From Brachionus manjavacas (lineage: Eukaryota; Rotifera; Eurotatoria; Ploima; Brachionidae): a DNA stretch of 64,000 bases. The notes beneath the pieces are model-generated. The model was not told where the DNA came from. It searched no databases and saw only the letters and a program-made list of their open reading frames with translations. Position numbers and translations under genes: made by a program. Shown piece by piece: positions 4,554-37,603 of the stretch (its first letter is position 1; each line of letters opens with the position of its first letter). The DNA lies in the NCBI GenBank assembly GCA_019054805.1, contig JAHQIY010000002.1, positions 3,286,001 to 3,350,000 of the forward strand. The letters run 5' to 3'.

Positions 4554-4626
4554 AGGCATCGCCGGGAATCGAACCCGGGATCTCCTGTTTACTAGACAGG
4601 CGCTTTAGCCACTAAGCCACGACGCC
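4554..4626 (-). tRNA. tRNA-Thr (AGT)
   Basis: Minus-strand copy of the tRNA-Thr, apparently the same sequence as at 1933, with anticodon AGT and a TTTTTTG terminator on the minus strand. Confidence 0.97.
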
Positions 4627-18500: not shown

Positions 18501-21500
18501 ATTTATACGAAGGGTTGCAGGTTTTAATAGAACCTACAAGAACCTTTAAGAAATTAATTAAAATTCTCTTAAAATTTAACATCAATTTTGTAATAATAAG
18601 CAAAAAATTTTAGTTAAATTAGAAAATAAATACTTTTGCTACCATTTCAAAATTTTTCAAAAAAGATATTAATAAAAAATCTTATTTGTGTTAAGGTAAC
18701 ATCGAAGTAAGCAATAAATTTGAGTCGTCCGAAAACATAGACTCACTAAACTTATCCGATTTATCTAATACAAGTTCTGCAAACAATTCACTGTGCCTTA
18801 ATGATGACCAAAAGCACTGTCTTCTCGACTTAATAGACGTCAAGTTCAGAAACACACAGTTGTATTCGGCTGAACGATACTCTCTAACTCAAAATTCTAG
18901 CCCAACATCAGATTTAATTTTTATCACATTTGGTTTTAAAAGCACTGGAACAATTCTCAAAACCGAAAACATCATTCAATTTCACTTGGAACGCAATTTG
19001 GAAAATGAAATTTCACATCGGTCACCAGATTGGTATGTTTACTCTAAATTCAGCTCTGTACAATTAAAAATAAACCTGGGCCAATATAAATTAATCCGCG
19101 GCTTACTTGACCAAAACATTGGCGAACAAATACAAACCGAACTAAATCCAGCTTTTGCACTCACCCACTATGCAGACACTGAAACAAGTGTAAATCAATG
19201 GAAAAAAATTAGCCTTATGTTTGACTTGGAGAATGTTTTTATCGAGCTATTAAATGAAGGTGACAAACCATTGGCATCAGCTGTGTTCATTATTTCTTCG
19301 TTGATATTCGAGAGTTTCTCAGATGATTCCAAACTGGTCGATTTGGTATCAAATGAAATTCAGATAAAAGATACGCGAGAGCCCAGTTTTGATGTGCTGC
19401 TAAAAAAAAATCTCACCAAAAGAGACTCACAGCGTCTTCAATTGGAAGTGCACTACAAATCCAAGAAAAATTCCAACAAGTACTCAATTTTGTTCAATAA
19501 TTGTCGCGTCATTACCATAATGGACTGGCTAATGGAAATGCACAATTTCATCAAAAAATATGAGAACCAAAGTGTCCAAAACAGCAATCAAGTCCAAGTT
19601 CCCAATGAACTTAAAGTAAACTTGATCAACACTGATTTTGTTCTTGCCGAACAACTATCCGAGCCTCAATCGCAAGCAATCATACTCCGATTGACAGCTT
19701 ATTTCGAGTACAGCGAGCTCAAAACAGACCCGGTTGACACTCGTTTGCAGTCGTTTGAGTTGTTCACTTGTCAAATGAATGACATTGAACAAACTGCCCT
19801 GTCCATCATTGAGCCCAGCACTTTAAGCATTGCTCTAAAGAAAAGAAACGAATTCAAGCACATGGTTGAAATGAATGCGGAAAAACTACGCCTCAGATTT
19901 TCCTATTTGGATTTTAAACTGTTTATTAGAGTTATTAAATCGGTTAAAAATCAGATAGAATCAAGCAACGAAAATGATGGCAATAATGACCATGGACCAG
20001 TGGTCAAAAACAAAAATTCTTCTATTGACCTGAATAACTTAGTAGTGTCTATAGACTCATTTTCAGTGTGTATCATTGACGACTGCAATGACATAGACAT
20101 ACCACTGGGCGACATTCAATTTAAAAAACTCAAACTAAACCAAGTAGTTTCGTCGCCAAGTCACGGATCGGTCGAGTTTGCTTTGAACATTGACTATTTC
20201 AATCGATTGCTGTCCGATTGGGAGCCGTTGGTTGAACCATGGTTGGCCAAGCTTTTTTGGAAATCAAAAATAGCCTCCAATGTGCTCACAGTGACTTCAA
20301 TGGACGTTCTCAATGTAAACTTGACCAATCCTTTTGTGAACATTTTGACCGAGACTTTGACAAATTGGAAAAAGGACTTTGACACATTGGCTGCCAAAAA
20401 TCACAAAGTATTCTACCCATTTGTTCTGGTAAACTCGACTGGACAAGCCATTCAATTTATGAAATTGGACACAGACTCCGAATGGACTCAATTGGCAGCC
20501 GGGTCAACGATCGAGTTCAATTTTTTCAAAAAGAAAACTCTTTACGGCCAAAAAAGCCACAATAACCAGCTGAGAAATTTGTCTAGGAACAAAATTCGTC
20601 TGAAATTGGACGATTGGTGCGAGATTAGACCATTGACTGTGGACAAAGTGGGCACTTATTTCAGAGACATTTACCCCATGTCAGGCTCGGGGCTTACTCG
20701 GCTAATATTCGACATTTCTCTGCAGCAAAATGCCACCAAATACATTGAAATAAAATCTCCGGTCACTATCAAAAACAAACTTGATCATGTGCTGGAGTGC
20801 CGCATCGAGTGTGGTAAGCTAGAGCCGATAGTACTCGATCTTGGTCGCGACAAAGAAATATCCGTGCCTATAAAATATTTGCCATGCTATGTGAGCCTTA
20901 GGCCGGCACATTTAAATTCTCAGTTTAGCTCTTGTCTATTGAATTTGTGTGAATGCGAACCGGGACATGTGGAATATGTGCCATTGACTTGTCAACTGGA
21001 CGAGCAAAAATTGTTCTTTTTTTTTGCTAGAATAATGCGCCACAAGTTTGAGTCGGACCCGAAGCTTAGTCGAAAATTTGATTTTGTCCCTGGACATTCG
21101 ATTCAAATCGAACCTGCCTTTAGCATACAAAATTTGCTGCCAATTGAGCTGCGCTATTTTTTTAGCGCTTTTTCGGGACGCATCGATTCCGACAATGTCC
21201 TAAATTTTTACAATGTCGATGTGTCCAAACCAGTCGAGTTAAATTTGGAAATCGATAATTATCACATGAACAAACCGCTTGAAATAAACCACAACAGACT
21301 GTTGGCAAATTTGGTACAAAATAACCAAGTACCAAATCGAAAGTACACTGTTTTTAGGCGAGTTAATTTTTTCGATGAAAACAACCGCGGTTTGTTTTTG
21401 ATAGGCCGTATCGAGTTCAGAATAGGCACTAACAGAAAAAATACTGCTGCCAGTGGATCGCGTCCGGCTTCCCTAGACGAAACCTTTGTCTATCCTATAA

Positions 21501-24500
21501 CTCTATACCTTTCGGCAGTGTACTGTTTTTTCAACTTGACCGGTTTGCCACTAATCTTCAGACAGTACAATTGTGATGAAGCGTCCGGTCAATCGGATGA
21601 ACACGAGTCCGTGTGCAGCACCCAACCACTGCTGTTCTCGTTCAATGATTGTGACTCGCCGTACGCGTGCTCAATGCGCATTGGCAAATACTGCATTGAA
21701 TTCAACAAAGAGCCAGGCCACGTCTTTACTCCGAAGTGGTGCAGAGCATTCGGTCTGGACTCGGGCTCTAGTTACCGGCCAGTTCACGTAAACTTCGATG
21801 AAACAGATGACGAACATCACAAACCAGACTGGGTCTACTACATTGGCATAGACATTAAACCTGGCAAAGATCTACACAGAGACACCACTTATGTTTACTT
21901 CAGCACTAGATATTATCTAGTCAATAGGTCCACTCGGGACTTGTTGATTTCCCAGTACAATTTTGTCAAACCAGAGCGTGAAAACATTCTAAATTGGAAA
22001 GCTAATCAAAATTTGAGCGAGTCTAAATTGAAAAATTCCATTCTGCTCCTAAAAGAATCAATGTCCCAGTATCACTGGTCTAGGGCCGACCTGGACCAAT
22101 TGTTAAGTCTGAGACCAAATGATGGCTTTGGCTACAATTGGTGCGGTGGCTTTAAAATTGATCAAATCGATGCTTTCTACATCAATTGTCGCCACTTGAA
22201 CAAAAATGAATTTGTTTGCTTTAAAGTGGAGATTTTTCTTGACGGTGGCACATTCTACATTGTTTTCACGGACAATTTAGACTATCCATTTCCGGTTCGA
22301 ATCGAAAACATGAGCCAAGTGCCCGTTCAAATTTATCAGCCATCTACTCTAGAGGAATCAAATCAAATACTAATCAAATCCAAGCAGAATTTTAACTACT
22401 GCTGGGACGAGCATGTTTGTGAGCACAAGTTGGTCATTGGTGTCAAAGGTGGCACCAGTGCTCTGTTTGATCTAGCTCTCAATGAAGAGAAAAAAACTCT
22501 GTTTTACGAAGACTTTTTTTATGTGGTCTTTGCCAGGCTGGACAGTCACCAAGCTGAAACAGATGATTTGAAGTCCGAGCAAGAGCTGGTGCTTACTTGC
22601 TCGGGAAAAAGGGTTTATTTGGATCTGAAGCAAACCTATAACCGGAATCAATTGTGGAGCTTTAGTCAAGAGGGACATTTGGTGCATGTGATGAGCTCGC
22701 CGCCTAAGGAAATGGGCGCACCGCTCGATCTGGCCACGAGCTACGTGCTGGACATAGAAGAAATTGCACCCAGGCCTCAGAGCTTCATGTCGCTGTCTCT
22801 AAACCGTCCGGATCCTCGGCGCCGAAACACCCAGTGCTGGCTCTTCGACCCGAACGGCAAGCTTTGCTGTAATGTAAAAAACATGTGCTTGCAAGTGATC
22901 GGTGACTTGAAGCACAAGGCCGAAGTTGTGCTCGGCCCTGGAACCAAAATGACCTATCAAGTAGTCAAACAGCAGCTAAGACCCGGCTCTGGTCAGGTGT
23001 GTGTGTCAATGAGCACCGATGGACCTTCTAGATTGGTCAGAATTTCCAATGTAAAAGATAAATCCTATCTTTCGATTAATTGGGAAAAATTGGACGAGAG
23101 CAGACCGGTGCGAAAGTCATTTGAGCTCTATGTTAATTTGAGTGGCGGAATTGGCTTGTCTGTAATCAATTGGAAGCAACAGGAATACGAAGAGCTTTTG
23201 TACGCCTATTTTAAATCGATTGAACTTTCGTTCGATCAGAGTCAAAGTGAACAAAAGCTTATTTTAGGAATACAAAGCATTCAGGTATGCAATCAATTGG
23301 TGGATGCAAGCAGACAAAACTTGGCCTATTCCATTCAGACTGGCGCCAAGCATGATCTAGCACTCAAGATTGATTTTTTGCGCAAATTACGTCCCGATCG
23401 TTCGCCAATTTTCATCGAACATTTGATTGTGAACCTACTGGATTTGAATGTTCAATTGGAAGAAAAACTTTTGTGGAAGTTGATCCAATTTTTGCACGCA
23501 ACCAAGCAACTACCCGAACGAAAACAAAATTTGTCCATCGAGTCAAATAGCTCCTATTATCGCAACCAAATAGGCAAATTGTGGCGCGATTCCCAAACGC
23601 TCCGATTCTCATTTGCCAAACTGCACATATCCGAGATACGCATGAGCCTTAGCGTGTTCAAAACAGCCAAATTGAGCGCTGATCTGCAAACTATAAAGTC
23701 CGATCTTGGCATTCCGTTGGTTCAATTTGAAAATGCGGCAATTGTTTGCAAATCATTTATGATCATTAATGAACACGACACGGCTAGTTGCCTGATTAAG
23801 TTAATAAGTAAACACTATGGTCAAGAGTTGCGCTCACATGCGATCAGAATTCTTGGCTCAGTTGACTTTTTGGGTAATCCGATCGGGCTAGTAGTTGATT
23901 TTAAAGAAAGTCTGACCAATGTGATATCGAACGGTCATGTGCCAGATTTTGTCTTTTCCATAACTCATGGCGTGGCCAATTCGGTTTCGAAATTTTCCGG
24001 CTCCTTGTCCGATGAGCTAAATGGCTTGACTATGGACGAAAATTATCAGCAAGTTCGCGAACAAATTAGAACTTTGTATAGCAATGGTTCGATGGATCAT
24101 TTTGTTGGCGGAGCTCTGGGCTTCGCGGCCGGAGTCTTTGGCGGAATGATTTCTTTGGGCACTCAAACTTATCAGGGTTTTAGTAAAGACGGAATTGGTG
24201 GAGCTTTCACGGGCATGATGCGTGGGGCAGTTGGAACAGTGTCTAAGCCAGTAGTGGGTGTGCTTGACTTTGCCACTGGGATAGCGTCTGCCATTAAGGA
24301 AACATCCAAGACTGGGAGCAAAATGGAGCTTCCAAAAATTAGGGAAAGTCGCTGTTGCTCCACATCAGGAGGATTGCTCAGTCTTTTTTCCCGTTTTGAT
24401 GCCAATGGTCAAAAAATTCTCTACCAAGTTAACGATTTGGACCTGTGCGAGAAGTTTATTGCCATGGAACAAATTAGATCAAGTGACAAAACCGAGCAAA

Positions 24501-24848
24501 ATATTGTGAGAGTTTTTTTGTGTCATTTTTTGTGTCATTTTTTTATATTGTTTTGATTAGATTCTGGTGACAGATAAAAGAATTTTGTTTGTTAGAGATA
24601 TTGAGTCAAATATCCAAGTGCTGTATGAGTATAAATATGAGCAGCTAAAAGGAAACAGGGGCACGAGTGTATCTCAGACGAAAAATCATGCGAATGTGAT
24701 CCTGCATCTTGAAGGTGACAAGCAATTTAAAATTCAGAGTCAAAATTTGGACATGGCCATTGCTTTGGAGAGCAAAATTCGTTCGGCAAAAGAGAATTTT
24801 GACGAAAAACTATACATTTTACACAATTATAAAGAGGAAGAAAATTAG
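9523..24848 (+). CDS. VPS13D: VPS13D, bridge-like lipid transfer protein
   Basis: Four exons joined in phase: 9523-13443, 15722-17138, 18696-24505, 24561-24848, giving 3811 residues (human VPS13D is about 4,390). The start MLEGLAAWVLKTYIGKYI is the chorein N-terminus in the VPS13D version. Other landmarks are the VPS13 adaptor-binding/SHR-BD region (about 2450-3000); a beta-trefoil, ricin-type lectin-like insert (about 3077-3225) that distinguishes VPS13D from other VPS13 paralogs; the Gly-rich C-terminal segment (FVGGALGFAAG, GIGGAFTGMMRG) of the VPS13_C/ATG2_C region; and a C-terminal PH-like end (ILVTDKRILFVRD). VPS13 proteins are rod-like lipid channels at membrane contacts; VPS13D is linked to mitochondria, peroxisomes and ER. 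I could not find the UBA domain. Exon 1 ends at N-GTAATT, and a Gly codon is split across intron 2. Intron 3 is only 55 bp. Introns 1 and 2 carry transposon relics. Confidence 0.95.
13725..13860 (-). pseudogene. MULE transposase C-terminal relic with AT-hook
   Basis: In VPS13D intron 1, minus strand, a frame reads LKYVKPPSAAKQVPIEEK, then KRKRGRPSKSTKAFIAE and a stop. The GRP core between basic residues is an AT-hook. The order "P-SAK-VPI-x-x-KRKRGRP" resembles the tail that follows the SWIM zinc finger of Mutator-like transposases. The relic at 41.7-42.0 kb has the same order. The rest of the protein is absent here. Confidence 0.5.
14300..14525 (+). mobile_element. LINE 3' fragment in VPS13D intron 1
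   Basis: The segment from ATATTGAATACTTAACTCAA through ATGTGTCACATGTAGCA to the tail ACAAATAAATAAATTT aligns by eye with the 3' part of the LINE in intron 2 (about 18092-18358). It is a short, 5'-truncated copy of the same family. Confidence 0.75.
15197..15402. mobile_element. Foldback MITE in VPS13D intron 1
   Basis: Arms of about 70-80 bp are inverted. The left arm holds TTAAGACTTAATTAATAAA and TGCTTCACCAAATGCA (ending 15278). The right arm (from 15332) is its reverse complement with small indels. The loop is about 53 bp. No coding sequence; ends not precisely defined. Confidence 0.75.
17318..18358 (+). mobile_element. 5'-truncated LINE in VPS13D intron 2, sense strand
   Basis: Starts inside the RT domain at AGVPQGSVISPLLFSIY, then after a frameshift gives LLFADDLVTFF with the catalytic FADD. 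It continues through 17508-17789 and 17735-17974 (KFLGIKFDSKLNFN; GSILDYSFPCLNSFS; IQNTAVRSTLKLKYDTPSNI) and the C-terminal piece at 17998-18204. It ends with AGCTCGGTAAGAAAACAAAT and an (AAAT)n tail. Stops and frameshifts show it is inactive. It lies wholly within the intron (17139-18695), so it does not break the VPS13D frame. Confidence 0.9.
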
Positions 24849-25248: not shown

Positions 25249-26679
25249 ATGAATTTTATTTTTGCGACCATTTTTTGCCTGACACTCTATCTTGAAAATG
25301 TCCATTGCCAAGCTTTAGCTGATTCAAAATCAAATTACATTAATTTTTACAAAGAAATGCTGTATCCTGCTTTTCGAAGGCATCGAGGAAGAATCAGACC
25401 TAATCACGGTAATAGAGGATCCCCAATAAACAAAATAAGAGGCTCACGAAGTGCTGATAAAAAATGTAATTACTCTTTAGATTTATTTGTAAAAAAAAAA
25501 TTTTAAAATTTATCTCTGTTTCTGAAATTGTTTCTCTAAAGGTAAAATAAATATTGGTAAAATTTTAATCAATTGATAGAAAATTCTGAATGCAGAGTTC
25601 AAACTATAAACATTAATTTTGTTTATAGAATAGTTTTTGTAAAAATTACTCTATTTAAAGTATGCTTATTTTTATTTTATCTTTTAGTTTAAATTAAGCT
25701 AAATCAAGTTAAAAATTTCAAAAATAAAGAAATAACATTGCCGTTTTTCCCAATTTACAATAATTCTTTTGTTCTACTTTAAGTTCTAGCTATTTTTATG
25801 TTGGAAAATATAATTTTTTATGAAAATATTTTTATGAAACTTTAGGTTTTGTGAAATTCAGTCCTAAATAATAAAAAGAAAAGAAAAAAACGTAAAAATA
25901 TTGAATAAATTTTCTTCTAAAGGTCTAAACTAAATATAAATACCTGCTAAATTTGCAGAGTTTAACACAAATTAAATTTCAATATAATCGAGCGTAGTGC
26001 ATTTTGCAGAGATTTTGCCCACCATTTGCATACTTTTACAGTTGATGCAACTTTGAATGTTTCACCATGCTGCATCCACAGAATTAATTTTAAACTTTTA
26101 GAAAAAAACTTATTTAATTTTTTTTACGATATTTTATGTAAATTGTTTGAGAAACGAGAAGCGGAACATCTCTGTATATAAATTTTGTTTTGACAGTATT
26201 TTAACTAAATTTAGCCTTTTAATGTAACGTTTTTAATTTAGTTTTTACCATTCTGTAAAAATTAAATTTTAAATAATTTTCTTTTTATAGCCAGTGATTC
26301 AGATAATGCAGAATGTGTTTTTTACAAAAATTCATTGATTTGTTCTGGCTTCGATTCCAAGAATTCTAAGATTAGTTTTGAATGTGACGCTGATGTGAGC
26401 ACTCAACTTGGATCAAAAATTTTAGTCGGAAATTTAAAAATTTATTCAAAAGATTATTCAAAAGTAAAATTAGATCTGTTTAGTTCTAATCAGATTGAGT
26501 CAAAGAATTCAAATAATTCTATACAATATAAATATAGTGATTCTAATGATCAAGGAATCAAAATTCGTGATAAAAATTGTTGGACAAAAGTTGTTGATTT
26601 TTTTATTGATGTGACTTTTAAAAAAATATTTAATTTTTTGGATCCATTTGACTATTTGGCCTCTATTTTATTTATTTGA
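25249..26679 (+). CDS. Secreted four-cysteine family protein, member 1 (two exons)
   Basis: Exons 25249-25465 and 26291-26679 join in phase through a split Ser codon and give 201 residues. The protein starts with a signal peptide (MNFIFATIFCLTLYLENVHC), followed by a basic Arg/Gly/Pro/Asn-rich stretch (RRHRGRIRPNHGNRG) and then the family domain: C-x8-C, a third Cys in FECDADV, and the fourth in DKNCW near the C-terminus. This is the most divergent member, the only one with a coding intron (825 bp) and the only one with a long hydrophobic C-terminal extension after the fourth cysteine. It lacks a clean K-R site before the domain but has basic residues (SRSADKK) at the same place. I do not recognise the family; extracellular or vesicular location is inferred from the signal peptide. 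Confidence 0.8.
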
Positions 26680-26849
26680 AATAAATTAAAAATTTTAAAA
26701 TTTTATAGACTTGGTATATTTTGCTTTGCTCAATTATTATAAAAAAAATGGAGAGAAAATTATATACATGCGTGATTAAAATTTAAAAATTGAAAGGACT
26801 AGCTAAAATCTTAATCTTTGATCTATCTTAAAACCAAAAATAAAGAAAA

Positions 26850-27353
26850 ATGAAAAGAACAGCTATATCCATAGTGATTTTTAGTTGGATTTATTTAGTA
26901 ATTTGCCAAATTGAATTTGATAAAAAAATCACTAGAAGGGATCTTAATTTGGAATCGATTGAAAATATTCTAAGACATGATATTCAATTTTTGAACGAGA
27001 AACCAGGTCTGTGTGTCTATTCAACAAAAACAAATTTTTTAAACTGCTTTGGAGTTAATGAAACCTTCGGTTGCCAAGTAATCCCACGACTGAATGATTT
27101 GAAAAATGTTTCTGTCGAATTGACCAATTTGAAAATTGCTGAAAACAATTCTACTCTAAGTTTATTTGAAGGAGAATCAAATATTACATTGGTAACCTCG
27201 GAAAATAAAAGACAAGTTATTGTTAGCATTAAAAATACTGATGATTTTCCAGAACCCGGAATTTTAGTAGAAAACGAGAGATGCTGGTCAAATTTATTCT
27301 TTTTTGTAGAAAATTTAGCTGAGGTGAATTTTAATTTAAGTCTGTTTCTATAA
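26850..27353 (+). CDS. Secreted four-cysteine family protein, member 2
   Basis: Single exon, 167 residues. Signal peptide MKRTAISIVIFSWIYLVIC, then a very short spacer with a dibasic site (ITRRDLN) and the family domain: GLCVYSTKTNFLNCFG, FGCQVIPRLNDL, and RCWSNLFFFVE at the end, with two NxT/S-type glycosylation sites between. Unlike its paralogs it has almost no low-complexity N-terminal segment, so it is close to the bare domain. The closing LSLFL is the same as in members 4-5. Its domain is nearest to the minus-strand copy at 32048. Function unknown. Confidence 0.85.
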   Translation: MKRTAISIVIFSWIYLVICQIEFDKKITRRDLNLESIENILRHDIQFLNEKPGLCVYSTKTNFLNCFGVNETFGCQVIPRLNDLKNVSVELTNLKIAENNSTLSLFEGESNITLVTSENKRQVIVSIKNTDDFPEPGILVENERCWSNLFFFVENLAEVNFNLSLFL

Positions 27354-27855
27354 TACTTAGCAATTTATAATTAATAATACAATTTTTATTTCGAATTATC
27401 TTAACTGTATTTTTAAGGACTAAATTTTAATTTTTTTTTCAAAAACTAATTTTATTGATCACAATTTTTTAATCAAAATAAAAGATTTCTATTCTAGATC
27501 TAATTTTTGATTTTTTGATTTAAAATAAAATTATTTCCTTAATTTGAATATTTTTTATTTTAATTTTTTTTTATCAGCTTAAAACTTAAAATATATTTGG
27601 TATTATTAATCTTAAATTTTAAGCCAATTTTTACAAAGTTAACTCTCTTACACGCTTTATAGATACTAAAAAATCAACTAAATAAAAAACGAGTGATCTT
27701 AAAAGTTGTAGAATATTCTACTTTATCCATGTTTTAAAAAATGCATGCTGTAAATCTCTCAATTTTTTTTAAATCGTATGAAAACTAAATCATCTAAGTT
27801 ATAAATTTCGATTGAAAAAGCTCTAAATAGGCTTAGTAAAGTGTTGTCTGATGCA
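27354..27855. other. Spacer between members 2 and 3
   Basis: AT-rich with no ORF of note. It ends with the TATA box of the next gene. Confidence 0.5.
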
Positions 27856-27863
27856 TATAAAAG
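27856..27863 (+). promoter_or_regulatory. TATA box of member 3
   Basis: TATAAAAG 64 bp upstream of the ATG at 27928. Several paralogs have a TATA box at a similar distance. Confidence 0.6.
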
Positions 27864-27927
27864 CATGATAACAAAATCTCAAAGCTTTAGTTTACACAAG
27901 ATTTCTTCAAGCGTCCAAAATTAAAAG

Positions 27928-28467
27928 ATGAAATTTATTGTTGCTATTGGTATATTGTGCTTGTCACAAGCATGCTTTGGATTTTTAGTACCTCCGATTA
28001 TTCCACCTGCTCTTTTGGTCGCTCATCCACTTTTGGCCAGAAATCTCTTATTATCTTCACTTCTATTAGGAAAACGTGAAATTTTACCATCAATTGAAGA
28101 TACAGTTGAGCCTAGCGATTGTGAATACACTGTGGGAAGTTCAGTATTAGAATGTAGAGGTCTAAATGAAACCATCAAATGTGATGTCACCGAAAGATTG
28201 AACGATTTGCCAAAATTTGATTCAACCATTAAAGATTTATTTTTGGTCAGAAAAAATGAGACCGATGCCAGTGTATTGAACATTGTTAGCGAAGAAACAG
28301 ACTTCACATTTACTAGACCAGATACACAAGACGAAATTTCTTTATCTATTTACAATGCTGAAGATATCAGTCTACCAGGTTTAGTAATCACAGACCAGGA
28401 ATGTTGGAATCAATTGGAAAAGATGTATGAAGAGTCTTCGTTTGTGTCAGTGAATTTAAATTTATAA
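27928..28467 (+). CDS. Secreted four-cysteine family protein, member 3
   Basis: Single exon, 179 residues. Signal peptide MKFIVAIGILCLSQACFG, then a hydrophobic Pro/Leu/Ala-rich stretch (LVPPIIPPALLVAHP), the dibasic site LLLGKRE, and the family domain: DCEYTVGSSVLECRG, IKCDVTERLNDL, ITDQECWNQL. GKR followed by an acidic residue is a prohormone-convertase site; if cut, the exposed Gly could donate an amide to the peptide before it. The C-terminus ends in NLNL rather than LSLFL. Transcribed towards RPUSD3, whose ATG is 218 bp further on. Function unknown. Confidence 0.87.
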   Translation: MKFIVAIGILCLSQACFGFLVPPIIPPALLVAHPLLARNLLLSSLLLGKREILPSIEDTVEPSDCEYTVGSSVLECRGLNETIKCDVTERLNDLPKFDSTIKDLFLVRKNETDASVLNIVSEETDFTFTRPDTQDEISLSIYNAEDISLPGLVITDQECWNQLEKMYEESSFVSVNLNL

Positions 28468-28684
28468 ATCAATTAAAAATATTTTTTTTCAATTTGTAGT
28501 AATTTTCTATTTTTAATTCGAATTTCATAATCAATTTTAGTCTGCAATACTTAATTTTTAATAAAATTAAATTTAATTCAATAAACTTTCTTTTTTCAAA
28601 AATTCCCAAAACTAGTCAAGTTTAATCTGCTTTTGATTTTAAATAAGATTCAGAATTAATTTAAAAAAATTAAAATTAAAAAAC

Positions 28685-29878
28685 ATGAATGCTGCCGCTC
28701 AAACCAGCCGCGCTCATTATTTAATTAGAGCAAATCCATTCAAAACAGTGGACTCACTCTCCCAACTAATCAACCAAAATTTGCATTTGACCAAAGATAA
28801 AAATATAGCTTTACTTAACAAACCACCTGGTTTTATTTTGTCAAGTAATTAATCGAAAATTCAAAAGAAATTTAATTAACTTTTACAGATAAGGGAAAAG
28901 ACATCCAAGGTTTTATACCCATAATCTGCCAAAACATTAAAGAAAAGCTTGGTTGGGCCAATGTATTACGAATTCCGATAGTTACCGAGTATATTCTTAA
29001 CTTTTTGATCTTTATTTTTTATCTAAAATTAATAAAGTGACCAAGCCGGGATTTTTATGCTAGCATCGAATAAGAACACATTCGATTTGGCAAAGAAAAC
29101 AATGAGAGACATGTGTCCTTCCCGACACATACCTTTTTTGAAATTTTAGTATGATTTTTAACTATTTGAATCTTTTAATAAAAAAATTATCTTTAGTGGA
29201 ATAACTTGTTTTATTCCGGGTTTGAAACACTCAAAACAAATTTTGCATCTCAGCTATGAAAATATTCACAATGATCTGTTAAATTTTGAGGTAATGGATC
29301 CATCTAAGAATGCATTCAAAACTAATCGAGTAGTCACCTACCAAATCGAGCATGACGTGGTTGATGTAAACAAGGATTTAAATGTGGCTTTAGTCCGTTT
29401 TACCACATCTTGGCGTAATTTTTGCATTCAAACATTGTTTAATTGATTTAACATTTTTTTAATTAGATAACGGTGATGGCATTTTGTTTTATGCAATGAA
29501 AAATTTGTTCCCAATTTTAGGAGACCATCGATATTCACCGAGAGTTAAAACTATTATGGGTAAACCAGTTTTGTTGGCCAACCAACATGACCAAAAACCA
29601 TCAGCACAAGTAATCTTTTTTTAAATAAAAAAAATAATTTTTTTGTAAAATTTATTCTAAAGATGCTAAACAGGCACGTTCAAAAGTGCTTACAAATTAA
29701 TGACTACATACGAGACATAGTGCCATTGCACTTACAACTTTATGAAATTAATTTAGAAAAAAAGTTCAAAAAACAAACAATTGTCTTTAAAGAGTCTGTC
29801 CAAATACAAGATTATTTTAAACAAACTTTGGAAAATTTTTTTCTAAAAATTCCAAAAGATGATTTAAATAAAGCTTAA
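28685..29878 (+). CDS. RPUSD3: Mitochondrial RNA pseudouridine synthase RPUSD3
   Basis: Six exons joined by eye: 28685-28844, 28889-28988, 29038-29148, 29197-29414, 29467-29609, 29663-29878, giving 315 residues (human RPUSD3 is about 350). All introns are 44-53 bp. Recognisable parts are IALLNKPPGF near the N-terminus, AGIFMLASNKNTFDLAKK in the position of the RLD..TSG block, FYGITCFIPGL, PILGDHRYSPRVKTIMGKP, and the C-terminal VPLHLQLYEI, all as in RPUSD3/4-type enzymes. The catalytic RLD motif reads TDDQAG here, and RPUSD3 proteins are also degenerate at this site, which favours RPUSD3 over RPUSD4. Known role: part of the mitochondrial 16S rRNA pseudouridylation/mitoribosome assembly module. 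The stop codon overlaps that of the convergent gene. Confidence 0.82.
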
Positions 29879-30780
29879 AAATCAAAATCTTTTTTAAATT
29901 CAGTGTATATATCTATTTTACCATTAGATAGATTTTCCCAATAGTAATCGGGAATACTGATCAATTCATCGTCCTGAATTATTCTAATAGTCACATTCTT
30001 GGAGCTCTTAACAATAGACTGACTGTCTGGAATGGTAAGGGACGTATAATTTTGCTCAATATTTTTGTCTTTTTCAAATTGTTTTTCTTTCGGCTTCCTG
30101 TCTATCGCAGCTACAGAAATGGGTCTTGATTTTTTTGGATTTGATGGCACAAATGAGCATACTGGTTCCTTAAAGTTTTTGGCTTTTGTACATGGCTTTT
30201 TTTGTGACAAGCTTTTTGATCTATGCTCACTTTTTCGTACAATGCTTTGCGACCTTGAATTTTTCAGATTCTGCGAGTTCTGCAGTTCGCATTTAGTTGT
30301 TTGTGAATCAAAATCATTTATATAAAAATTTTCAATTGAAACTTGATCATCATATTTTATTTTTTGAAAGCTAAATGAACTGAAAAAATTGCTTAAACAG
30401 CTTAATTTCTTGCTAAATTGTTCATATTCTTTATCTTTTTGAAAATTTAAAAATTGGCTTGAAATAAATTTTTAAAAATATACTTTCAATGCGAAAGCGA
30501 ATTTTGGACAAATTATGCCTAACTTTTTCTAAATTCTGCACCGCTTCTTTGACGATCTTTTCCGAATCTAAACGCAAAAAATTAGATATTTACAAAGTGA
30601 AAAATTTTCTTTTTACAATACCTTTCCGGTTAGGATTTTTCTCAAAATCATCCTTTATTGATTCAATTTGGGCTAAGCTGACCAATATTTCATCTGCCTA
30701 TTAATTTTTTATTAATTTTTTTTTAAATCTGCTTAATTAAGTTTTCCTACATGAGTGAATACTGTTTTTCGAGAAGTCAT
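29875..30780 (-). CDS. Unrecognised coiled-coil-like protein (four exons)
   Basis: Predicted exons on the minus strand are 30780-30751, 30697-30622, 30567-30484 and 30434-29875, joined in phase with introns of 46-54 bp, giving 249 residues. The N-terminal third (SLAQIESIKDDF, AVQNLEKVRHNLSKIRFRI) is helix-forming and heptad-like. The middle is basic, Ser/Lys-rich and probably disordered. The C-terminus is a short, more conserved-looking block (ISIPDYYWENLSNGKIDIY). I do not recognise the family. A small kinetochore or microtubule-associated protein is one possibility, but this is only an impression from the layout. The exon 3/4 junction is the least certain, because a shorter intron there would be out of phase. 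Convergent with RPUSD3. Confidence 0.6.
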
Positions 30781-30918
30781 GATGAAAGAAATATTTTGTT
30801 TTAAAGTTACAATTTATTATTAAAAAATTATGGCTAAAATTTGATTTTACAAAAAAAAAAAAAATTTTTACAATTCATGCGATTCTAATTTTAAAAAATG
30901 ACTAAAAAATTTGTTAAG

Positions 30919-31677
30919 TTATAAAAATAAAGCAATTTGAATGTCTTCTCTTTTGTTTTCTTTGACTAAATTTTCCACTTTTTCCCAACATTGAGAGTCA
31001 CTGATCATCAAGCCTGGATCGTTGATTTTTTTTGAATTAAACAATGATAAAACTATTTTTCGTTTAGTCAATGGCTCTACAACCGTAAAATCTGACTCAG
31101 GGGTAAAAAGTCTGAGGACACTTAGATTGTCTTCCTCAGCAGGAACCAACTCCAATCTGGATAATCTTAACCTAAGTTTTTCTAGGCCTGATAATTTTTG
31201 GGTTACATCACAATCAAAGCTACTATTCGCTCCATTGCAGGATAAAATTTTTCTATCACTTGAATAATTGCAAAATGTTTTGTTAAATGGAAACTCTTCT
31301 TCATCCATTACTTCCTCAGATACACCGTCTTCGGTCGAATTTGTAAGATCACGTTTAAAAAAATCTCGACGGAAAGGCCTAGGTCTTCTTCTTCTTAAGC
31401 TTCTAAATCTACCAAATCCACCGTGGTGAAAACCAACGAGGGGACTAGCCATTAATGGAACAGCAACAGGTACAGGGACTGGATGTGCTACAGGTACAGC
31501 AACTGGGTGAGCTACTGGAACAGGTACTGGATGAGCAACCGGAACAGAATTCATAAGAGGCATTGAATGAGCCATTGTCAATGGTTGGGACATCGCCAAC
31601 GAGTGATCAGGAAACATCTGAGAAGTACCTAAGTTATAAAAGCAACTCAAAACTACCAAAGCCAAAAATTTTATCAT
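30919..31677 (-). CDS. Secreted four-cysteine family protein, member 4 (PVAHP-repeat form)
   Basis: Single exon, 252 residues. Signal peptide MIKFLALVVLSCFYNLGTSQ, then a Met/Pro/His-rich region with tandem VPVAHP-like units (residues about 45-74), an Arg-rich stretch (FRSLRRRRPRPFRRD), the dibasic site FFKRD, an acidic linker and the family domain: FCNYSSDRKILSCNG, FDCDVTQKLSGL, SDSQCWEKV, ending IALFL. The longest member because of its N-terminal repeats. Potential N-glycosylation sites (NST, NKT, NYS, NSS) lie after the KR site. Unknown function; the layout is signal peptide, low-complexity propeptide-like region, convertase site, cysteine domain. Confidence 0.87.
   Translation of the reverse strand: MIKFLALVVLSCFYNLGTSQMFPDHSLAMSQPLTMAHSMPLMNSVPVAHPVPVPVAHPVAVPVAHPVPVPVAVPLMASPLVGFHHGGFGRFRSLRRRRPRPFRRDFFKRDLTNSTEDGVSEEVMDEEEFPFNKTFCNYSSDRKILSCNGANSSFDCDVTQKLSGLEKLRLRLSRLELVPAEEDNLSVLRLFTPESDFTVVEPLTKRKIVLSLFNSKKINDPGLMISDSQCWEKVENLVKENKREDIQIALFL
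31456..31545 (-). repeat. In-gene PV/AHP codon repeat
   Basis: About five imperfect units of VPVAHP or VPVPVAHP encoded by short tandem repeats, a substrate for replication slippage. It gives member 4 its extra length. Confidence 0.8.
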
Positions 31678-31731
31678 TCTCGATAAGTTAAGCTCAAAGA
31701 TTTAATATTAAAATGAACAATTATCAAAAAG

Positions 31732-31739
31732 TATTTATA
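31732..31739 (-). promoter_or_regulatory. TATA box of member 4
   Basis: TATAAATA on the minus strand, 55 bp upstream of the ATG, preceded by ACTAG exactly as in member 5. Confidence 0.6.
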
Positions 31740-32047
31740 CTAGTTTATAAGAAAAAATTGAGACTTTGAAAAAGCGTGTTTTTGTTGAATAAAATGAATC
31801 TTTTATTTGGTGGTAAGCTTTAAAAAAGGATTGACAGGAGATTTGTCCTGAATTTACTAATTTTTCTATAAAAAATTGGTTATCATTATTATATGATTTA
31901 TTCTGACATTAAAAAAAAATTTAAATCACTCAAAAATTGGAATCTTTAATTATTTAAAATTTTAAATTGAATTAATTAGAGGTAAATTAAAAATTAATTA
32001 CAAGAAAAGTTAAAATTACATTATAGGATATAATTATTAATTTTAAT

Positions 32048-32767
32048 TTACAAAAAAAGGCTTAATCTAAAATTGACATTAATAAATCTTTCTAAAAAAT
32101 ATACTAGATTAGACCAGCATTCATCATTATCGATAAAAATACCTGGTCCTGAAAAGTTATCTACATTTTTCAAACTAACTAATATTTTGGTACTGTTCTC
32201 AGGAGCCTCTAGTGTAAAATTAGATCCTTTTTCAACTAATTTCAACATATTTTCTTCTTCGACCATTTCCAAATTTGTCAATTTGACTGTAACATTCTTC
32301 AATTGATCAAATCTTGGTTCAACCTCACAAGCAATTGTTTCATTTTGGCCGAAACAGTTCATAAAATTGAATTTTGTTGAAAAGAAACAAATGTTTTTGT
32401 CAGTTTCGTTTAATAGCTTGATGTCATCAGTGTCTAAAAGATCTACAGTTGGGTTGGAATCAGAAGCATCACGTTTAAAAAAGCCAAAATTGTTTCCAAA
32501 ACCTCGACCAAAACTACGTCCGAACCCATGACCCAATCCATGATCAAAACCATGTCCGAAGCCATGACCAAAACCATGATCAAAACCATGTCCGAAGCCA
32601 TGACCAAATCCATGCTTCAAGCCATGTCCAGAACCCCGACCAAATCCGCGACCAGAATGTCCGAAACGAGAGCGTCGGCGAAAAAAAGGTCGTCTAAAAA
32701 ATTCACTATGAGAACTTGCCAATTTAAATAAAATTATTAATATTAGCAAAAAGCTTAATTTCTCCAT
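32048..32767 (-). CDS. Secreted four-cysteine family protein, member 5 (GHGF-repeat form)
   Basis: Single exon, 239 residues. Signal peptide MEKLSFLLILIILFKLASSH, an Arg-rich piece (RRPFFRRRSRFG), a Gly/His/Phe repeat (GHGFGHGFDHGF units, residues about 40-91), the dibasic site FFKRDASD, and the domain starting NPTVDLLDTDDIKLL. The middle of that domain is almost identical, in DNA as well, to members 6 and 7, but the last 25 residues (ECWSNLVYFLERF..LSLFL) are not: they resemble members 2 and 4 and keep Cys-Trp. So this gene is a mosaic. The Gly/His-rich segment could bind metal or form a gel or matrix, which is inference only. Confidence 0.88.
   Translation of the reverse strand: MEKLSFLLILIILFKLASSHSEFFRRPFFRRRSRFGHSGRGFGRGSGHGLKHGFGHGFGHGFDHGFGHGFGHGFDHGLGHGFGRSFGRGFGNNFGFFKRDASDSNPTVDLLDTDDIKLLNETDKNICFFSTKFNFMNCFGQNETIACEVEPRFDQLKNVTVKLTNLEMVEEENMLKLVEKGSNFTLEAPENSTKILVSLKNVDNFSGPGIFIDNDECWSNLVYFLERFINVNFRLSLFL
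32495..32650 (-). repeat. In-gene Gly-His-Phe tandem repeat
   Basis: Tandem 12-bp units encoding GHGF or DHGF, with higher-order units of about 36-48 bp (the phrase CCATGTCCGAAGCCATGACC occurs twice). Expansion by slippage or unequal exchange is likely. Confidence 0.85.
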
Positions 32768-32821
32768 TTTCTTTTTGTTGCTGGCTTCTTGATTATATTG
32801 CAGATTAATCTTATTTTACTA

Positions 32822-32829
32822 CTTTTATA
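32822..32829 (-). promoter_or_regulatory. TATA box of member 5
   Basis: TATAAAAG on the minus strand, 55 bp upstream of the ATG, in the context ACTAGTATAAAAG shared with member 4. Confidence 0.6.
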
Positions 32830-32962
32830 CTAGTCTAATACATTTTTCTAGATTCTTCGACTTGAATTTCTTTTAAGTATAAATTTAAATTTTTAATGTG
32901 TAACTTTTTTGATTCGATTTTGAGCCTTTTGGATGTTTTTTTAAAAGCAAATATTATAACAG

Positions 32963-33184
32963 AAAATATTGCAGCCTCATAAGCTGAAACACAGCTTTGG
33001 TGCGTGCAGCTAACTCAATTTCGCTCATTTTAAACATTCTAAACTTATACCGCATGTTCAAAACTGAAAACAAATAATAAATTCAGAAAAAATATCAAGC
33101 TTTAATGCCACATTAAATTTAAAAAAATGATTGAACATCATTTTTTTCACCAAAGGTTTGGTCAGTTTAGGAGGCTGCAATATC
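32963..33184. mobile_element. Short MITE-like inverted repeat element
   Basis: ATATTGCAGCCTCATAAGC at the left and, on the complement of the right end, ATATTGCAGCCTCCTAAAC: about 22 bp of imperfect inverted repeat bounding about 220 bp with no ORF. Target-site duplication unclear. Confidence 0.6.
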
Positions 33185-34418
33185 GAAAAAGGGATTGCGG
33201 TAATAATATTATTATAAATTTAATTTAAAGGTACTACCCAGCTTATTTGAATTCAATTTAAAAGTCCGAAAACTAAGTTTTTCAAATATTAGAAATTTAT
33301 ATTAAATTACAATAAAAATTTAAGATCAACAAAAGGGAGCATAAAAGGCCTTTAAAAAATTAAAAATATAATTACTTTAAATATTGAGCGTGGCCATTTT
33401 GTGATCGATCTTTTACAAAAAATGTAAACAGAGTTAACAAATCCAAAATGTGAACTCATTGTTAATAGAGTCTTCCTTCACAAATTGGACCAATATTTTC
33501 AAGTGTGCATTATATAAAATTATTATGAAACTGAAATTCATTTTACTCGAAAATTTACTTTTTTTAGATTAAGGAAAAATGAAAAAATTGAAAAAAAAAT
33601 GACTAAACAAAGTTTTTCCCTTATTAAATAACTTTTATATATAAATAATTAAGAAAAAATAATTAAAAAAAAATAATTTAACACTAGAATACCCTAAAAA
33701 GATTTTAGACTTTTTTCACAAAAAGTTTTATTTAATAAAAACCCAACAAAATATAATCGAATTTTTTTACCCCCTAATTTAATGTTAAAAAAGTGTTATA
33801 AATTTTAAAAAGATTTAATTATTTTTAAACATCATTAAAAAATATTAACATAAAAAACCATAGTTTTTTAAAACATGCCAAAAATTTTGTAATGTTTTTC
33901 ACCAATATTGTCCTTAGATTCAGCAATTTTTTCAAAATTTGAAAAAAAATAATTATTTTTATATTCATGATTACAAAAAATTGCAATTAAAGAAAGAAAA
34001 GCAGTAATAAAAACTTTTTGTTCTATCCTAAATAAAAAGAGATTTTAAAGTATCAATGATAAAAAAATTTTGTGCTCTAAAATTTTTACTTAGTTTTAAT
34101 CATTTTTTCTATGATACAGCAATTTTTACAGTGCTTGAATTAATTCATTAATGTTATTTTTATTATTGTATAAAATTTTAAATTCTAAGATAAAAATAGC
34201 CAAAAACAATTTTTTTAATTTAATGTTATAAAAATGTTTTTTAAACTTCTAGAGTCTTAAAAGTAAAAAAAAAATGGATTCTCAAAAGTCAATAGTTATA
34301 AAAAAATATTTAAATGACCATAAATATCAAAAATTGTCACTGATTGAAATAAAAATTTAAATTGAAAAAATTCAATTTAATTAGAAAGTTTTTTCTTCAA
34401 ACTTCACTGCCAAATTAA
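33185..34418. other. AT-rich spacer between members 5 and 6
   Basis: No gene, tRNA or clear inverted repeat found. Composition is extremely AT-rich. Confidence 0.5.
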
Positions 34419-35024
34419 ATGTGATTCTAGAAAGATTGAATTAAATTAGATTAAATTGTTTTATTAAAGGATTTTTATAAACAGAAATTAAATAAAATAA
34501 TGTCATTTATTCACAAATATATTTTAGTAAAAAAAAAGATAAAAATAAAAAATTTGATAGAAATTTTTGATGAAATTTTGCAAAATTTTACAATTAAAAT
34601 ATAAATTTACAAAAAAATACTTAAAATAAAATCTATTTTATCAAATTTACGTACAAATAAGAGTAAGCTCGACAAGCATTCATCATTATCGATAAAAATA
34701 CCTGGTCCTGAAAAGTCATCTACATTTTTCAAACTAACTAATATTTTGGTACTGTTCTCAGGAGCCTCTAGTGTAAAATTAGATCCTTTTTCAACTAATT
34801 TCAACGTATTTTCTTCTTCGACCATTTCCAAATTTGTCAATTTGACTGTAACATTCTTCAATTGATCAAATCTTGGTTCAACCTCACAAGCAATTGTTTC
34901 ATTTTGGCCGAAACAGTTCATAAAATTGAATTTTGTTGAAAAGAAACAAATGTTTTTGTCAGTTTCGTTTAATAGCTTGATGTCATCAGTGTCTAAAAGA
35001 TCTACAGTTGGGTTGGAAATCTCT
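34419..35024 (-). repeat. Recently duplicated block, copy A
   Basis: Nearly identical to 36839-37431. It covers the last about 140 codons of member 6, the 3' UTR and about 180 bp beyond. It begins near ATGTGATTCTAG and ends inside the coding sequence at the TTGGAAAT just after the KR site. Upstream the two genes differ completely. Confidence 0.9.
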
Positions 35025-35173
35025 CGTTTACCAAATCTATTTAATATTGGTCTTCGTTGACCAAGAGCGGATATTCCAAAATTTAAAAAGGGCATTCTGA
35101 AAAACCCTCCGGGACAACAGACAACTGAAATAAATATGCTCAGAATTAACAAAATTAAGCTTATTTTTTTCAT
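34607..35173 (-). CDS. Secreted four-cysteine family protein, member 6 (RFGKR form)
   Basis: 188 residues from the ATG at 35173. The frame is open further to an ATG at 35269, but the TATA box lies only 16 bp from that codon, so transcripts should start after it, and the downstream ATG begins a proper signal peptide (MKKISLILLILSIFISVVCC). A short spacer ends in GQRRPILNRFGKRE: Arg-Phe-Gly before Lys-Arg is the standard layout of an RFamide precursor (cleavage, then amidation). The family domain follows, near-identical to members 5 and 7, but the fourth motif is ECLSSLLLFVRKF instead of CW. Function unknown; a neuropeptide-like role for the N-terminal piece is a hypothesis. Confidence 0.85.
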   Translation of the reverse strand: MKKISLILLILSIFISVVCCPGGFFRMPFLNFGISALGQRRPILNRFGKREISNPTVDLLDTDDIKLLNETDKNICFFSTKFNFMNCFGQNETIACEVEPRFDQLKNVTVKLTNLEMVEEENTLKLVEKGSNFTLEAPENSTKILVSLKNVDDFSGPGIFIDNDECLSSLLLFVRKFDKIDFILSIFL

Positions 35174-35284
35174 TTTTTTCTCTTCAATATTATTTCTTAA
35201 AGCCAAAATTTTAAAATAGTTTAGCTTAAATGAATGTAAAATGCTTTTGTGTACGATTATTAGCTTCAAAATGTTTCTGTAAGT

Positions 35285-35292
35285 TTTTTATA
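35285..35292 (-). promoter_or_regulatory. TATA box of member 6
   Basis: TATAAAAA on the minus strand, 112 bp upstream of the chosen ATG and too close to the first in-frame ATG (35269) for that codon to be used. Confidence 0.45.
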
Positions 35293-35550
35293 GTGTTAAA
35301 AATTTATTCTTAAAATTTTTTTCCACTGTAATTTAAGAAAATAATTCCTCTTTAAATTTTTATTCGATTTTACATTTTTATCGGCAGTGAAGAATTGATT
35401 TCATTTAAATTATCTTTTAAACATCATTAAAATTTAAATGTAATCAATCTTAAAATCTTAAAATCTATCTTAAAATTCTATGTCTTTTAAATAACTGGCA
35501 ACTTGAAGTTCATTAATATGATCACATCATCAAAACTTAATTGAAAATTA

Positions 35551-35877
35551 GTGTTGGCATTCGATTATCAATAGTCGATTCAATAGTTGACTAATTTTTT
35601 TTAGTTAACTATTAAATCGACTAAATTTTTTTAGTAAATTTGGTTTTATTACGTTTTATTACGTTAATTTACGTAAAATAATCATGTCGTAGCACTGTTT
35701 AATCAATTTGGGACAATTGTTTCTAAAAATTTTTCAAATTTACAAATTAAAAAACCCTTATACCGCAATTTTTTTAATTCCATATTGAATATACAGTGTT
35801 ACTACGACTTTATTATTACACGTAAATTAACGTAATGAAACCAATTCGACTAAACAAAATTAGTCGATTACCAACAC
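35551..35877. mobile_element. MITE with long inverted repeats and TA flanks
   Basis: The ends are GTGTTGG...CCAACAC, flanked on both sides by TA. Inverted arms of about 90-100 bp include ATCGACTAA-like segments, a TTACGTTAATTTACGT core and GTCGTAG..CACTGT. TA target duplication fits Tc1/mariner-type mobilisation. No coding sequence. Confidence 0.8.
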
Positions 35878-35965
35878 TAATAAAAATCTTAATAAAATTA
35901 GGAAATTGGCTTTTTTTAATTTTTTTTAATTAAAAATTAAATTTTAATTATTTAATTAACATTAA

Positions 35966-36430
35966 GGCTCAGTTGTACCAAGCGTACGTAAGACCAGTGC
36001 TCCTTTTTGTGCTGGATGCTCTAGAAATTAATCAGACAAAAATAAGGAGAATACAAGTCACTGAATCAAGCATTCTTAAAAGCATTTTCGGACTACCTAG
36101 AAATTCAAAGAGCATTTGCAAACGCCTTAGGAATTGACAAAATTGAATCTCGAATGTCTCACGTCAAAGTGTTGTCTTTTAATAAGATTATGTGAAAATT
36201 CGCTGACTTTTTGCTTTTTAAATAGCGATTATAAACAGCTTACCGATGATCTTTATGGTAAATCTTTTTTAAGCTCTTAAAATCAGAAAAGATGCAAGAA
36301 AACCAATAATGTCTTTATTATTGGTGGTCGAACCTACAAATGTTTTCTATTTTTAAATTCTAAAAATTTTTGTACCTATTTTTTTTACGACGCTTTTTGG
36401 TAATTTTTTTCAAATAAAATAAATAAATAA
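35966..36430 (+). mobile_element. LINE RT C-terminal fragment
   Basis: The plus-strand frame reads QLYQAYVRPVLLFVLDALEI, NQTKIRRIQVTESSILKSIF and GLPRNSKS, then, after disruption, LGIDKIESRMSHVKVLSF. The "LYxAYVRPVLLYGLE" block follows the RT palm domain in many LINEs. The piece ends with an (AAAT)n tail near 36415-36434. This is a second LINE family, distinct from the copy at 5.3-8.1 kb. Confidence 0.75.
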
Positions 36431-36838
36431 ATAAGAAATTTTAATTAAAATTTTTTTTTTTCAAATTGAGTTTAAATGATTTCTTCTAAAATCTTTTTTT
36501 TGAAAATTTAAAGATGAATTTAGAATCTAGATTGAAAAATTTAAATAATGGCTTTTAAAATATTTTACAGCGAAACTAAGTCAAATTTTGTATTGGAATT
36601 TTGGTATGAAAATTTACAATGCCAAGTAATAGGGATTGCTTTTTTTTATTATTTATGGTTGAATAAATATTTTTGGACAACAGGGTCGCAAATGAAGTTT
36701 ACAGAAATTCGAATTTCAATAGAAACTAAACTCGATGGCTTTAAAAGGCCGCGGTGAAGTTTGGAGCAAAAAAAATTAAAGCAAAGCAAAATATTTAAAG
36801 ATTTTTTTCAATTTTAAGAAATTGAAAATTATTTTAGA

Positions 36839-37431
36839 TGTGATTCTAGTAAAGATTGAATATTAAATTGTTTTATTAAAGGATTTTTATAAACAGAAAT
36901 TAAATAAAATAAAGTCATTTATTCACAAATATATTTTAGTAAAAAAAAAGATAAAAATAAAAAATTTGATAGAAATTTTTGATGAAATTTTGCAAAATTT
37001 TACAATTAAAATATAAATTTACAAAAAAATACTTAAAATAAAATCTATTTTATCAAATTTACGTACAAATAAGAGTAAGCTCGACAAGCATTCATCATTA
37101 TCGATAAAAATACCTGGTCCTGAAAAGTCATCTACATTTTTCAAACTAACTAATATTTTGGTACTGTTCTCAGGAACCTCTAGTGTAAAATTAGATCCTT
37201 TTTCAACTAATTTCAACGTATTTTCTTCTTCGACCATTTCCAAATTTGTCAATTTGACTGTAACATTCTTCAATTGATCAAATCTTGGTTCAACCTCACA
37301 AGCAATTGTTTCATTTTGGCCGAAACAGTTCATAAAATTGAATTTTGTTGAAAAGAAACAAATGTTTTTGTCAGTTTCGTTTAATAGCTTGATGTCATCA
37401 GTGTCTAAAAGATCTACAGTTGGGTTGGAAA
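36839..37431 (-). repeat. Recently duplicated block, copy B
   Basis: Partner of 34419-35024 (see there). The differences seen by eye are few, e.g. AATAAAGTC versus AATAATGTC in the 3' flank and one coding change giving Val for Ala in LEAPENSTK. Confidence 0.9.
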
Positions 37432-37603
37432 TTATTTCACGCTTTCCGAATGGTCTTCTGAATGGACGGAATTGACGAAATGGACGAAAAAATGGTCTTC
37501 TAAACGGCCGAAATAAACCAGGGCGTCTAAACCCAAATCTCTGACTATTTGATATTACAATTGAACAGCAAATTAAAAATAATATCAAAGCAATATTTTT
37601 CAT
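37019..37603 (-). CDS. Secreted four-cysteine family protein, member 7 (RPF-rich form)
   Basis: Single exon, 194 residues. Signal peptide MKNIALILFLICCSIVISNS, then an Arg/Pro/Phe-rich segment built from RPF-type units (FRRPGLFRPFRRPFFRPF), ending in RRPFGKRE, so a Gly precedes the dibasic site as in members 3 and 6. The domain from NPTVDLLDTDD to the stop is almost identical to member 6, including ECLSSLLLFVRKF. The N-terminal part is unrelated to member 6 apart from the signal-peptide style. A processed, amidated RPF peptide is possible but not shown. Confidence 0.87.
   Translation of the reverse strand: MKNIALILFLICCSIVISNSQRFGFRRPGLFRPFRRPFFRPFRQFRPFRRPFGKREIISNPTVDLLDTDDIKLLNETDKNICFFSTKFNFMNCFGQNETIACEVEPRFDQLKNVTVKLTNLEMVEEENTLKLVEKGSNFTLEVPENSTKILVSLKNVDDFSGPGIFIDNDECLSSLLLFVRKFDKIDFILSIFL

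What the first reader, a model, noticed from the sequence alone, without database searches (positions are those of the whole stretch)
25249..37603. Cluster of seven secreted proteins: variable low-complexity N-terminus on a shared four-cysteine domain
All seven have a signal peptide and a C-terminal domain with C-x(8-9)-...-C, a third Cys in (F/I)-x-C-(D/E/Q)-V, a fourth in (E/Q/R/N)-C-W/L near the end, and a run of NxS/T sites. Between them lie unrelated compositions: RPNHG, PVAHP repeats, GHGF repeats, RPF repeats, a hydrophobic Pro/Leu stretch, or almost nothing. Most have a basic (KR or RR) site exactly at the boundary. I know no described family with this layout. It could be precursor proteins whose N-terminal parts are released, or structural/defence secretions with a common export or folding domain.
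Basis: partly seen in the sequence, partly recalled or inferred. Interest (0 to 1): 0.87.

Follow-up and report, generated by a model that had tools for sequence, protein, structure and literature searches.

The report
Rotifer peptide precursors with swappable peptides
In a rotifer genome, one unknown, probably sugar-decorated protein domain is joined, through a likely protease cutting site, to very different peptides placed before or after it, which suggests a family of secreted peptide precursors whose active parts are exchanged between genes.

The parts
25249..26679 (+). g1: exon 1 25249-25465 (signal peptide 25249-25308, Arg-rich peptide 25309-25449), predicted phase-1 intron 25466-26290, exon 2 26291-26679 (four-Cys domain)
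   Evidence: exon-1 peptide partly kept in paralogues L059 and L155
26850..27353 (+). g2: signal peptide 26850-26906, 9-aa peptide plus RR 26907-26939, four-Cys domain 26940-27350
27928..28467 (+). g3: signal peptide 27928-27981, Pro/Leu-rich peptide ending GKR 27982-28077, domain 28078-28464
30919..31677 (-). g4: signal peptide 31621-31677, PVAHP-repeat and Arg-rich peptide ending FFKR 31351-31620, domain 30922-31350
   Evidence: AlphaFold model: peptide part of low confidence, domain folded
32048..32767 (-). g5: signal peptide 32711-32767, GHGF-repeat peptide ending FFKR 32471-32710, domain 32051-32470
   Evidence: domain 337/339 nt identical to g6 from SNPTVD to the fourth Cys, then 24 differences in 72 nt
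34607..35173 (-). g6: signal peptide 35117-35173, peptide ending NRFGKR 35024-35116, domain 34610-35023
   Evidence: domain 410/411 nt identical to g7
37019..37603 (-). g7: signal peptide 37544-37603, Arg/Pro/Phe repeat peptide ending RPFGKR 37439-37543, domain 37022-37438

Best explanation
These are precursors of secreted peptides. A signal peptide sends the protein into the secretory pathway. A compact, mostly acidic, probably N-glycosylated domain with four conserved cysteines (probably two disulfides) acts as a constant carrier or pro-domain. A prohormone-convertase-type cut at KR/RR/RxxR frees a hypervariable peptide, which in some members is then amidated (GKR). The peptide sits before the domain in the window genes and after it in most members elsewhere. 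Gene conversion or ectopic recombination homogenises the domain and sets it next to different peptides. Most likely the peptides are antimicrobial or otherwise defensive surface/gut effectors, kept soluble and inactive by the domain. Shown by sequence: layout, basic joints, sequon richness of the domains, mosaic identity, peptide conservation in some paralogues. Inferred: signal-peptide cuts (set by eye), cleavage, glycosylation, amidation, disulfides, carrier role, antimicrobial role.
For: Basic site at the peptide/domain joint in 19 of 19 precursors examined, in both layouts (joints picked by eye, g1 with weak GSR, L024 read from a fragment). For g5, g6 and g7 the joint is placed independently: BLAST identity of the domains begins 1-4 codons after the KR codons; basic pairs inside domains occur at 0.8% of residues. 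Sequons in 18 precursors: 76 in domains (29.0 expected from shuffles, maximum 45 of 1000); with near-copies left out (13) 49 against 19.7, maximum 34; peptides have 0. Net charge: domain negative in 17 of 19; peptide -1 to +11, at least +4 in 7 of 19. Mosaic identity: g6/g7 domain 410/411 nt while BLAST finds nothing upstream; B5/B6 signal-peptide-plus-domain 543/546 nt against peptide 86/129. Peptide better kept than domain: B1/B2 19/20 against 142/173 aa; g1/L059 26/47 against 39/105; weakly B3/B7, 13 of 19 aligned against 85/166. Folded domain and low-confidence peptide part in both models. Published analogue with measured activity: myticalins (PMC5577615 passages).
Against: No expression, peptidome or activity data. 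12 of 19 peptides have net charge below +4, and several (B1-B5, B8, B9, B10) are near-neutral and very aromatic or Gly/Ser-rich, unlike classic cationic antimicrobial peptides. The lack of sequons in peptides is only weakly beyond chance: 4.7% of shuffles give 0, 9.4% with near-copies left out. g1 lacks a clean dibasic joint and its domain is not acidic (net 0; B9 +2). g2 would release only 9 residues and L156 has almost no tail. The signal-peptide-plus-peptide parts of g5-g7 align above shuffles (z 4.3-4.6), so they may be distantly related or merely share composition. Peptide conservation rests on few pairs, one of only 20 residues.
Confidence: 0.5

Rival explanations
1. Adhesive, mucus or lorica proteins: the low-complexity Gly/aromatic/His parts are structural or sticky segments and the glycosylated domain keeps them soluble until secretion. 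Cleavage may or may not occur.
For: GHGF, GYGSGWGRGF and GWGW-type repeats; very aromatic, near-neutral peptides in several class-B members.
Against: Peptides differ widely between near-identical domains. A search for Brachionus pedal-gland adhesive proteins returned one paper, on male anatomy (listing), so there is no molecular comparison either way.
Confidence: 0.22
2. Neuropeptide or hormone precursors with a carrier domain, as vasopressin/oxytocin precursors carry neurophysin (recalled): SP, peptide, GKR, Cys-containing domain.
For: GKR in g3, g6 and g7, and a possible RF-type end in g6 and g8; KR sites are shown in an in-silico B. plicatilis neuropeptide precursor (PMC10730642 passages).
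Against: Single long low-complexity peptides, extreme divergence between paralogues, many members without an amidation site, peptide at either end. No neurophysin in the Pfam scans.
Confidence: 0.12
3. Uncleaved secreted binding proteins: the four-Cys domain is the functional part and the variable segments are drifting linkers or tails.
For: g2 and L156 have almost no peptide; the domain is the only part common to all.
Against: Peptide conserved more than domain in B1/B2 and g1/L059, weakly in B3/B7; basic joint in the 19 examined.
Confidence: 0.13

Closest known systems
Myticalins / modiocalins (mussel linear cationic antimicrobial peptides, PMC5577615, passages seen)
   Same: SP, hypervariable Pro/Arg-rich peptide, KR, negatively charged C-terminal extension; multigene. 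Myticalins have a phase-1 intron just after the joint, as predicted for g1 and, by eye, in L059/L155.
   Different: Here the extension is a folded four-Cys sequon-rich domain of about 130-140 aa; the signal peptides of the window genes differ (in myticalins they are conserved); other members put the peptide last; g2-g7 show no intron. Sequence homology not tested.
Cathelicidins (recalled)
   Same: Constant four-Cys pro-domain of about 100 aa with a hypervariable peptide; domain-first order in class B.
   Different: No Pfam cathelicidin match; class A has the reverse order; the genes look mostly single-exon.
Vasopressin/oxytocin-neurophysin precursors (recalled)
   Same: SP, peptide, GKR, Cys-stabilised carrier domain.
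   Different: Neurophysin has 14 Cys; no Pfam match; peptides here are mostly longer and diverse.
L,D-transpeptidases (YkuD fold)
   Different: No SxGC at the matching place, no Pfam match, profile comparison not significant.

Membership tests
Myticalins | SP, hypervariable peptide, KR, anionic C-terminal extension | tested here: met
   For class A window genes: g3-g7 end in KR, g2 in RR; domain charge -9 to -19 in g2-g7. g1: weak site, domain charge 0.
Myticalins | Conserved signal peptide | tested here: not met
   g1-g7 signal peptides differ; g5/g6/g7 share no BLAST-detectable DNA upstream of the domain.
Myticalins | Sequence homology of the precursor | not tested
   No myticalin sequence was on hand.
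Cathelicidins | Cathelin domain (Pfam) | tested here: not met
   No cathelicidin family among hits up to E 1 for 7 window proteins and 9 others.
Cathelicidins | Cathelin (cystatin-like) fold | tested here: inconclusive
   Not among the rows listed for two models, which does not exclude it.
Cathelicidins | Pro-domain first, hypervariable peptide last | tested here: not met
   Met by class B (10 of 19 precursors) but reversed in class A, 9 of 19, including all seven window genes.
L,D-transpeptidase (YkuD) | Catalytic His and S/T-x-G-C | tested here: not met
   Among 18 precursors and 21 domain rows the only [STG]xGC is TFGC at the third Cys of g2; a His lies 15-19 residues before the fourth Cys in 8 of 26 loci. 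The motif was found in 12 of 15 bacterial enzymes by the pattern used.
L,D-transpeptidase (YkuD) | Significant profile match | tested here: not met
   No YkuD in the Pfam scans up to E 1; hhalign P 0.12-0.55, probability at most 0.5%.
L,D-transpeptidase (YkuD) | YkuD fold | tested here: inconclusive
Neurophysin-type precursors | Neurophysin domain with 14 Cys (recalled) | tested here: not met
   No Pfam neurophysin; 4 Cys in 16 and 5 Cys in 2 of 18 domains.

The most novel reading that the evidence does not exclude
The constant domain is a catalytically dead L,D-transpeptidase (YkuD) fold, possibly captured from bacteria, that rotifers turned into a secreted glycosylated pro-domain. It may still recognise peptidoglycan and so carry the attached peptide to bacteria, and gene conversion lets it be re-armed with new peptides at either end.
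Probability: 0.12. Interest if true: 0.88.

Novelty: new variant of a known kind. Interest (0 to 1): 0.62.

Why it matters
Rotifers are laboratory and aquaculture animals, and my searches of an open-access library showed no endogenous antimicrobial-peptide family of theirs (capped listings: 15 of 36, 12 of 27 and 12 of 983 papers). A carrier domain that serves peptides on either side, with sharp sequence breaks at the processing site, would be a clear case of modular precursor evolution and gives about 20 candidate peptides to synthesise and test. If the fold link to L,D-transpeptidases were real, it would also be an unusual reuse of a bacterial cell-wall enzyme fold.

Tried and rejected
Known families: Pfam on 7 window and 9 other proteins, NCBIfam on 19 members, PDB sequence search with one protein and two profiles. 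Only weak scattered hits: Pfam best E 0.019, NCBIfam best 0.0053 (TonB, one member), PDB best 0.2. Pollen Ole e 1 was tried first as a guess (no match, but no control rang, so uninformative). A splice-leader sequence from memory gave no match. YkuD homology by profile: two bacterial sets, 11 enterobacterial and 14 more diverse, not significant. With the profile of all members and that of the non-g2-g8 members the best local fit lies at the active-site strand (P 0.15 and 0.12); with g2-g8 alone it lies elsewhere (P 0.17). Cystatin/cathelin fold: not in the listed rows. Rows dropped as not family: C13:2440179 (E 0.12, one stop, no profile hit) and C2:2934675 (E 2.3, one stop, not fetched). TATA-like boxes upstream of 16 of 18 genes were not pursued because the DNA is AT-rich and no background was computed. 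Tree: layout needs 3 changes (2-4 in bootstraps), but supported branches force only 1, so repeated switching of the peptide's side is not shown; two rows have long, unsure branches. An earlier sequon count included part of the L024 signal peptide; one search replaces it.
Full report
ORGANISM. The window lies in a 114-Mb genome of 61 contigs at C2:3286001-3350000. The forward primer for the mate-recognition gene mmr-b of the Brachionus plicatilis complex (read in passages of PMC3495898 and PMC2746195) matches exactly at C7:5027191 and with one mismatch at two more sites on C7, with no match of the control pattern. I take the genome as a member of that complex; the species is not determined.

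OBSERVATION. Seven genes g1-g7 occupy 25249-37603. Each has a signal-type N-terminus (cut set by eye), a peptide of its own composition, a basic site (weak in g1), and a domain of about 130-140 residues with C-x10-C-x8-C-x(69-73)-C in g2-g7 (x8 between the first two in g1). g1 has a predicted phase-1 intron between peptide and domain.

FAMILY. Genome searches with single proteins give 26 loci: 7 in the window; on C2 also 2928320, 3275275, 3278491, 4976791, 4995410, 5004281; on C7 475600, 932281, 1677943, 4740933, 4745550, 4750197, 4755919, 4757009, 4757834, 4758961; C4 7722703; C14 199657 and 1563712. The tool calls such counts lower bounds. Some entered on weak E-values (C7:4758961 0.2; C7:1677943 0.26; C14:1563712 0.004). 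Five loci that were not in my profile score E 8.2e-12 or better with it: L031, L035, L044, L058, L155; L155 and L035 are close copies of rows in the profile. Reversed ORFs give none of 3423. Profiles of g2-g8 and of 14 other members match at probability 96.8%, E 2.3e-10; scored singly, the 14 range from E 6e-8 to 0.06 against g2-g8, the 7 from 1e-12 to 8e-4 the other way (database size set to 1000). Eighteen loci give a precursor in one frame (g1 with its predicted splice); L024 I joined by eye from two pieces; L059 and L155 are two-exon genes read separately; L031, L035, L044, L058 and L156 are partial or have almost no tail.

TWO LAYOUTS. Class A (peptide, then domain): g1-g7, g8 at C2:2928320, and L032 on C4. 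Class B (domain, then KR/KK/RxxR, then an aromatic or Gly-rich peptide): ten precursors on C7, C2 (4.98-5.00 Mb) and C14. Examples of class B tails are WIGWGIGWNRGWGWG..., YFFGGYGSGWGRGFG... and WLWYGLGYGYYGYPFYFYGK. A tree of 21 domains puts g2-g8 in one group (100/100) and g1, L059 and L032 among class B; the layout needs three changes, but strongly supported branches force only one.

PRECURSOR FEATURES. A basic joint is present in all 19 examined; I picked the joints by eye, g1 counts with the weak GSR and g8 with RRFGR. Sequons in 18 precursors: 76 in 2663 domain residues against 29.0 expected from shuffled domains (maximum 45 of 1000); with near-copies left out, 49 against 19.7. Peptides have 0 in 666 residues against 2.6 expected, which 4.7% of shuffles also give, 9.4% with near-copies left out, so that half is weak. 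Domains are net negative in 17 of 19; peptides range from -1 to +11.

MOSAIC EVOLUTION. g6 and g7 domains share 410 of 411 nt, and g5 shares 337 of 339 nt with g6 up to the fourth-Cys codon and then differs at 24 of 72. BLAST similarity begins 1-4 codons after the KR codons and does not reach into signal peptide, peptide or the 600 nt upstream. By global alignment the upstream coding parts of g5-g7 score 4.3-4.6 sd above shuffles, so shared composition or an old relation is not excluded. In class B the copies B5/B6 share 543 of 546 nt of signal peptide and domain but 86 of 129 aligned nt of peptide; B5/B8 peptides share more, 87 of 109. In the g1-type genes L059 and L155 the first 98 peptide nt differ at one place, the rest of the peptide and the signal peptide differ more, and the domains are 98% identical. 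Conversely some peptides are better kept than their domains: B1/B2 19/20 against 142/173 for signal peptide and domain, g1/L059 26/47 against 39/105, and weakly B3/B7, 13 of 19 aligned against 85/166. This argues that the peptides are functional. Gene conversion or unequal exchange is my inference; concerted evolution is proposed for mmr-b in the same animals (PMC3495898 passages).

KNOWN KINDS. Myticalins have the class A layout: hypervariable cationic peptide, KR, anionic C-terminal extension, and a phase-1 intron after the joint (PMC5577615 passages). Cathelicidins have the class B order (recalled). The rotifer family matched no cathelicidin model in Pfam; myticalin homology was not tested. 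It differs in having one folded domain used on either side. Searches for rotifer antimicrobial or peptide precursors listed no paper that I recognised as describing this family (capped listings of an open-access library). PMC8878817 (passages) says rotifers encode several thousand proteins without known homology or domains.

JUDGEMENT. Precursor architecture: likely (about 0.75). Precursor with defence as the main role: about 0.5. Adhesive or structural and signalling roles remain open.

Noticed in passing
window 861-4626: Six tRNA genes in two score classes, three copies each, lie on both sides of a WD40-repeat gene at 2095-3633.
   Followed up: no
window 5432-8007 (-): ORFs that look like pieces of a non-LTR retrotransposon (recalled likeness; Pfam gave no match for two of them).
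   Followed up: no
window 9523-24556: VPS13-type gene directly upstream of the cluster (Pfam VPS13_N on the 9523-13464 ORF; the rest by look). Two more family genes lie further upstream at C2:3275275 and 3278491.
   Followed up: partly
window 28643-29878: Open frames of an apparently unrelated gene lie between g3 and g4, and the cluster's two halves are on opposite strands.
   Followed up: no
window 35615-35869: A region that matches its own reverse complement at 68%, between g6 and g7; possibly a small mobile element.
   Followed up: no
G000:C21:120555-121901 (L017): The only COX1 match in the genome is open for 667 aa in the standard code, so probably bacterial: contig C21 may be a contaminant or symbiont.
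   Followed up: no
G000:C7:5017989-5124088: mmr-b primer sites lie on C7, about 0.26-0.38 Mb from the class B cluster at C7:4.74-4.76 Mb.
   Followed up: no
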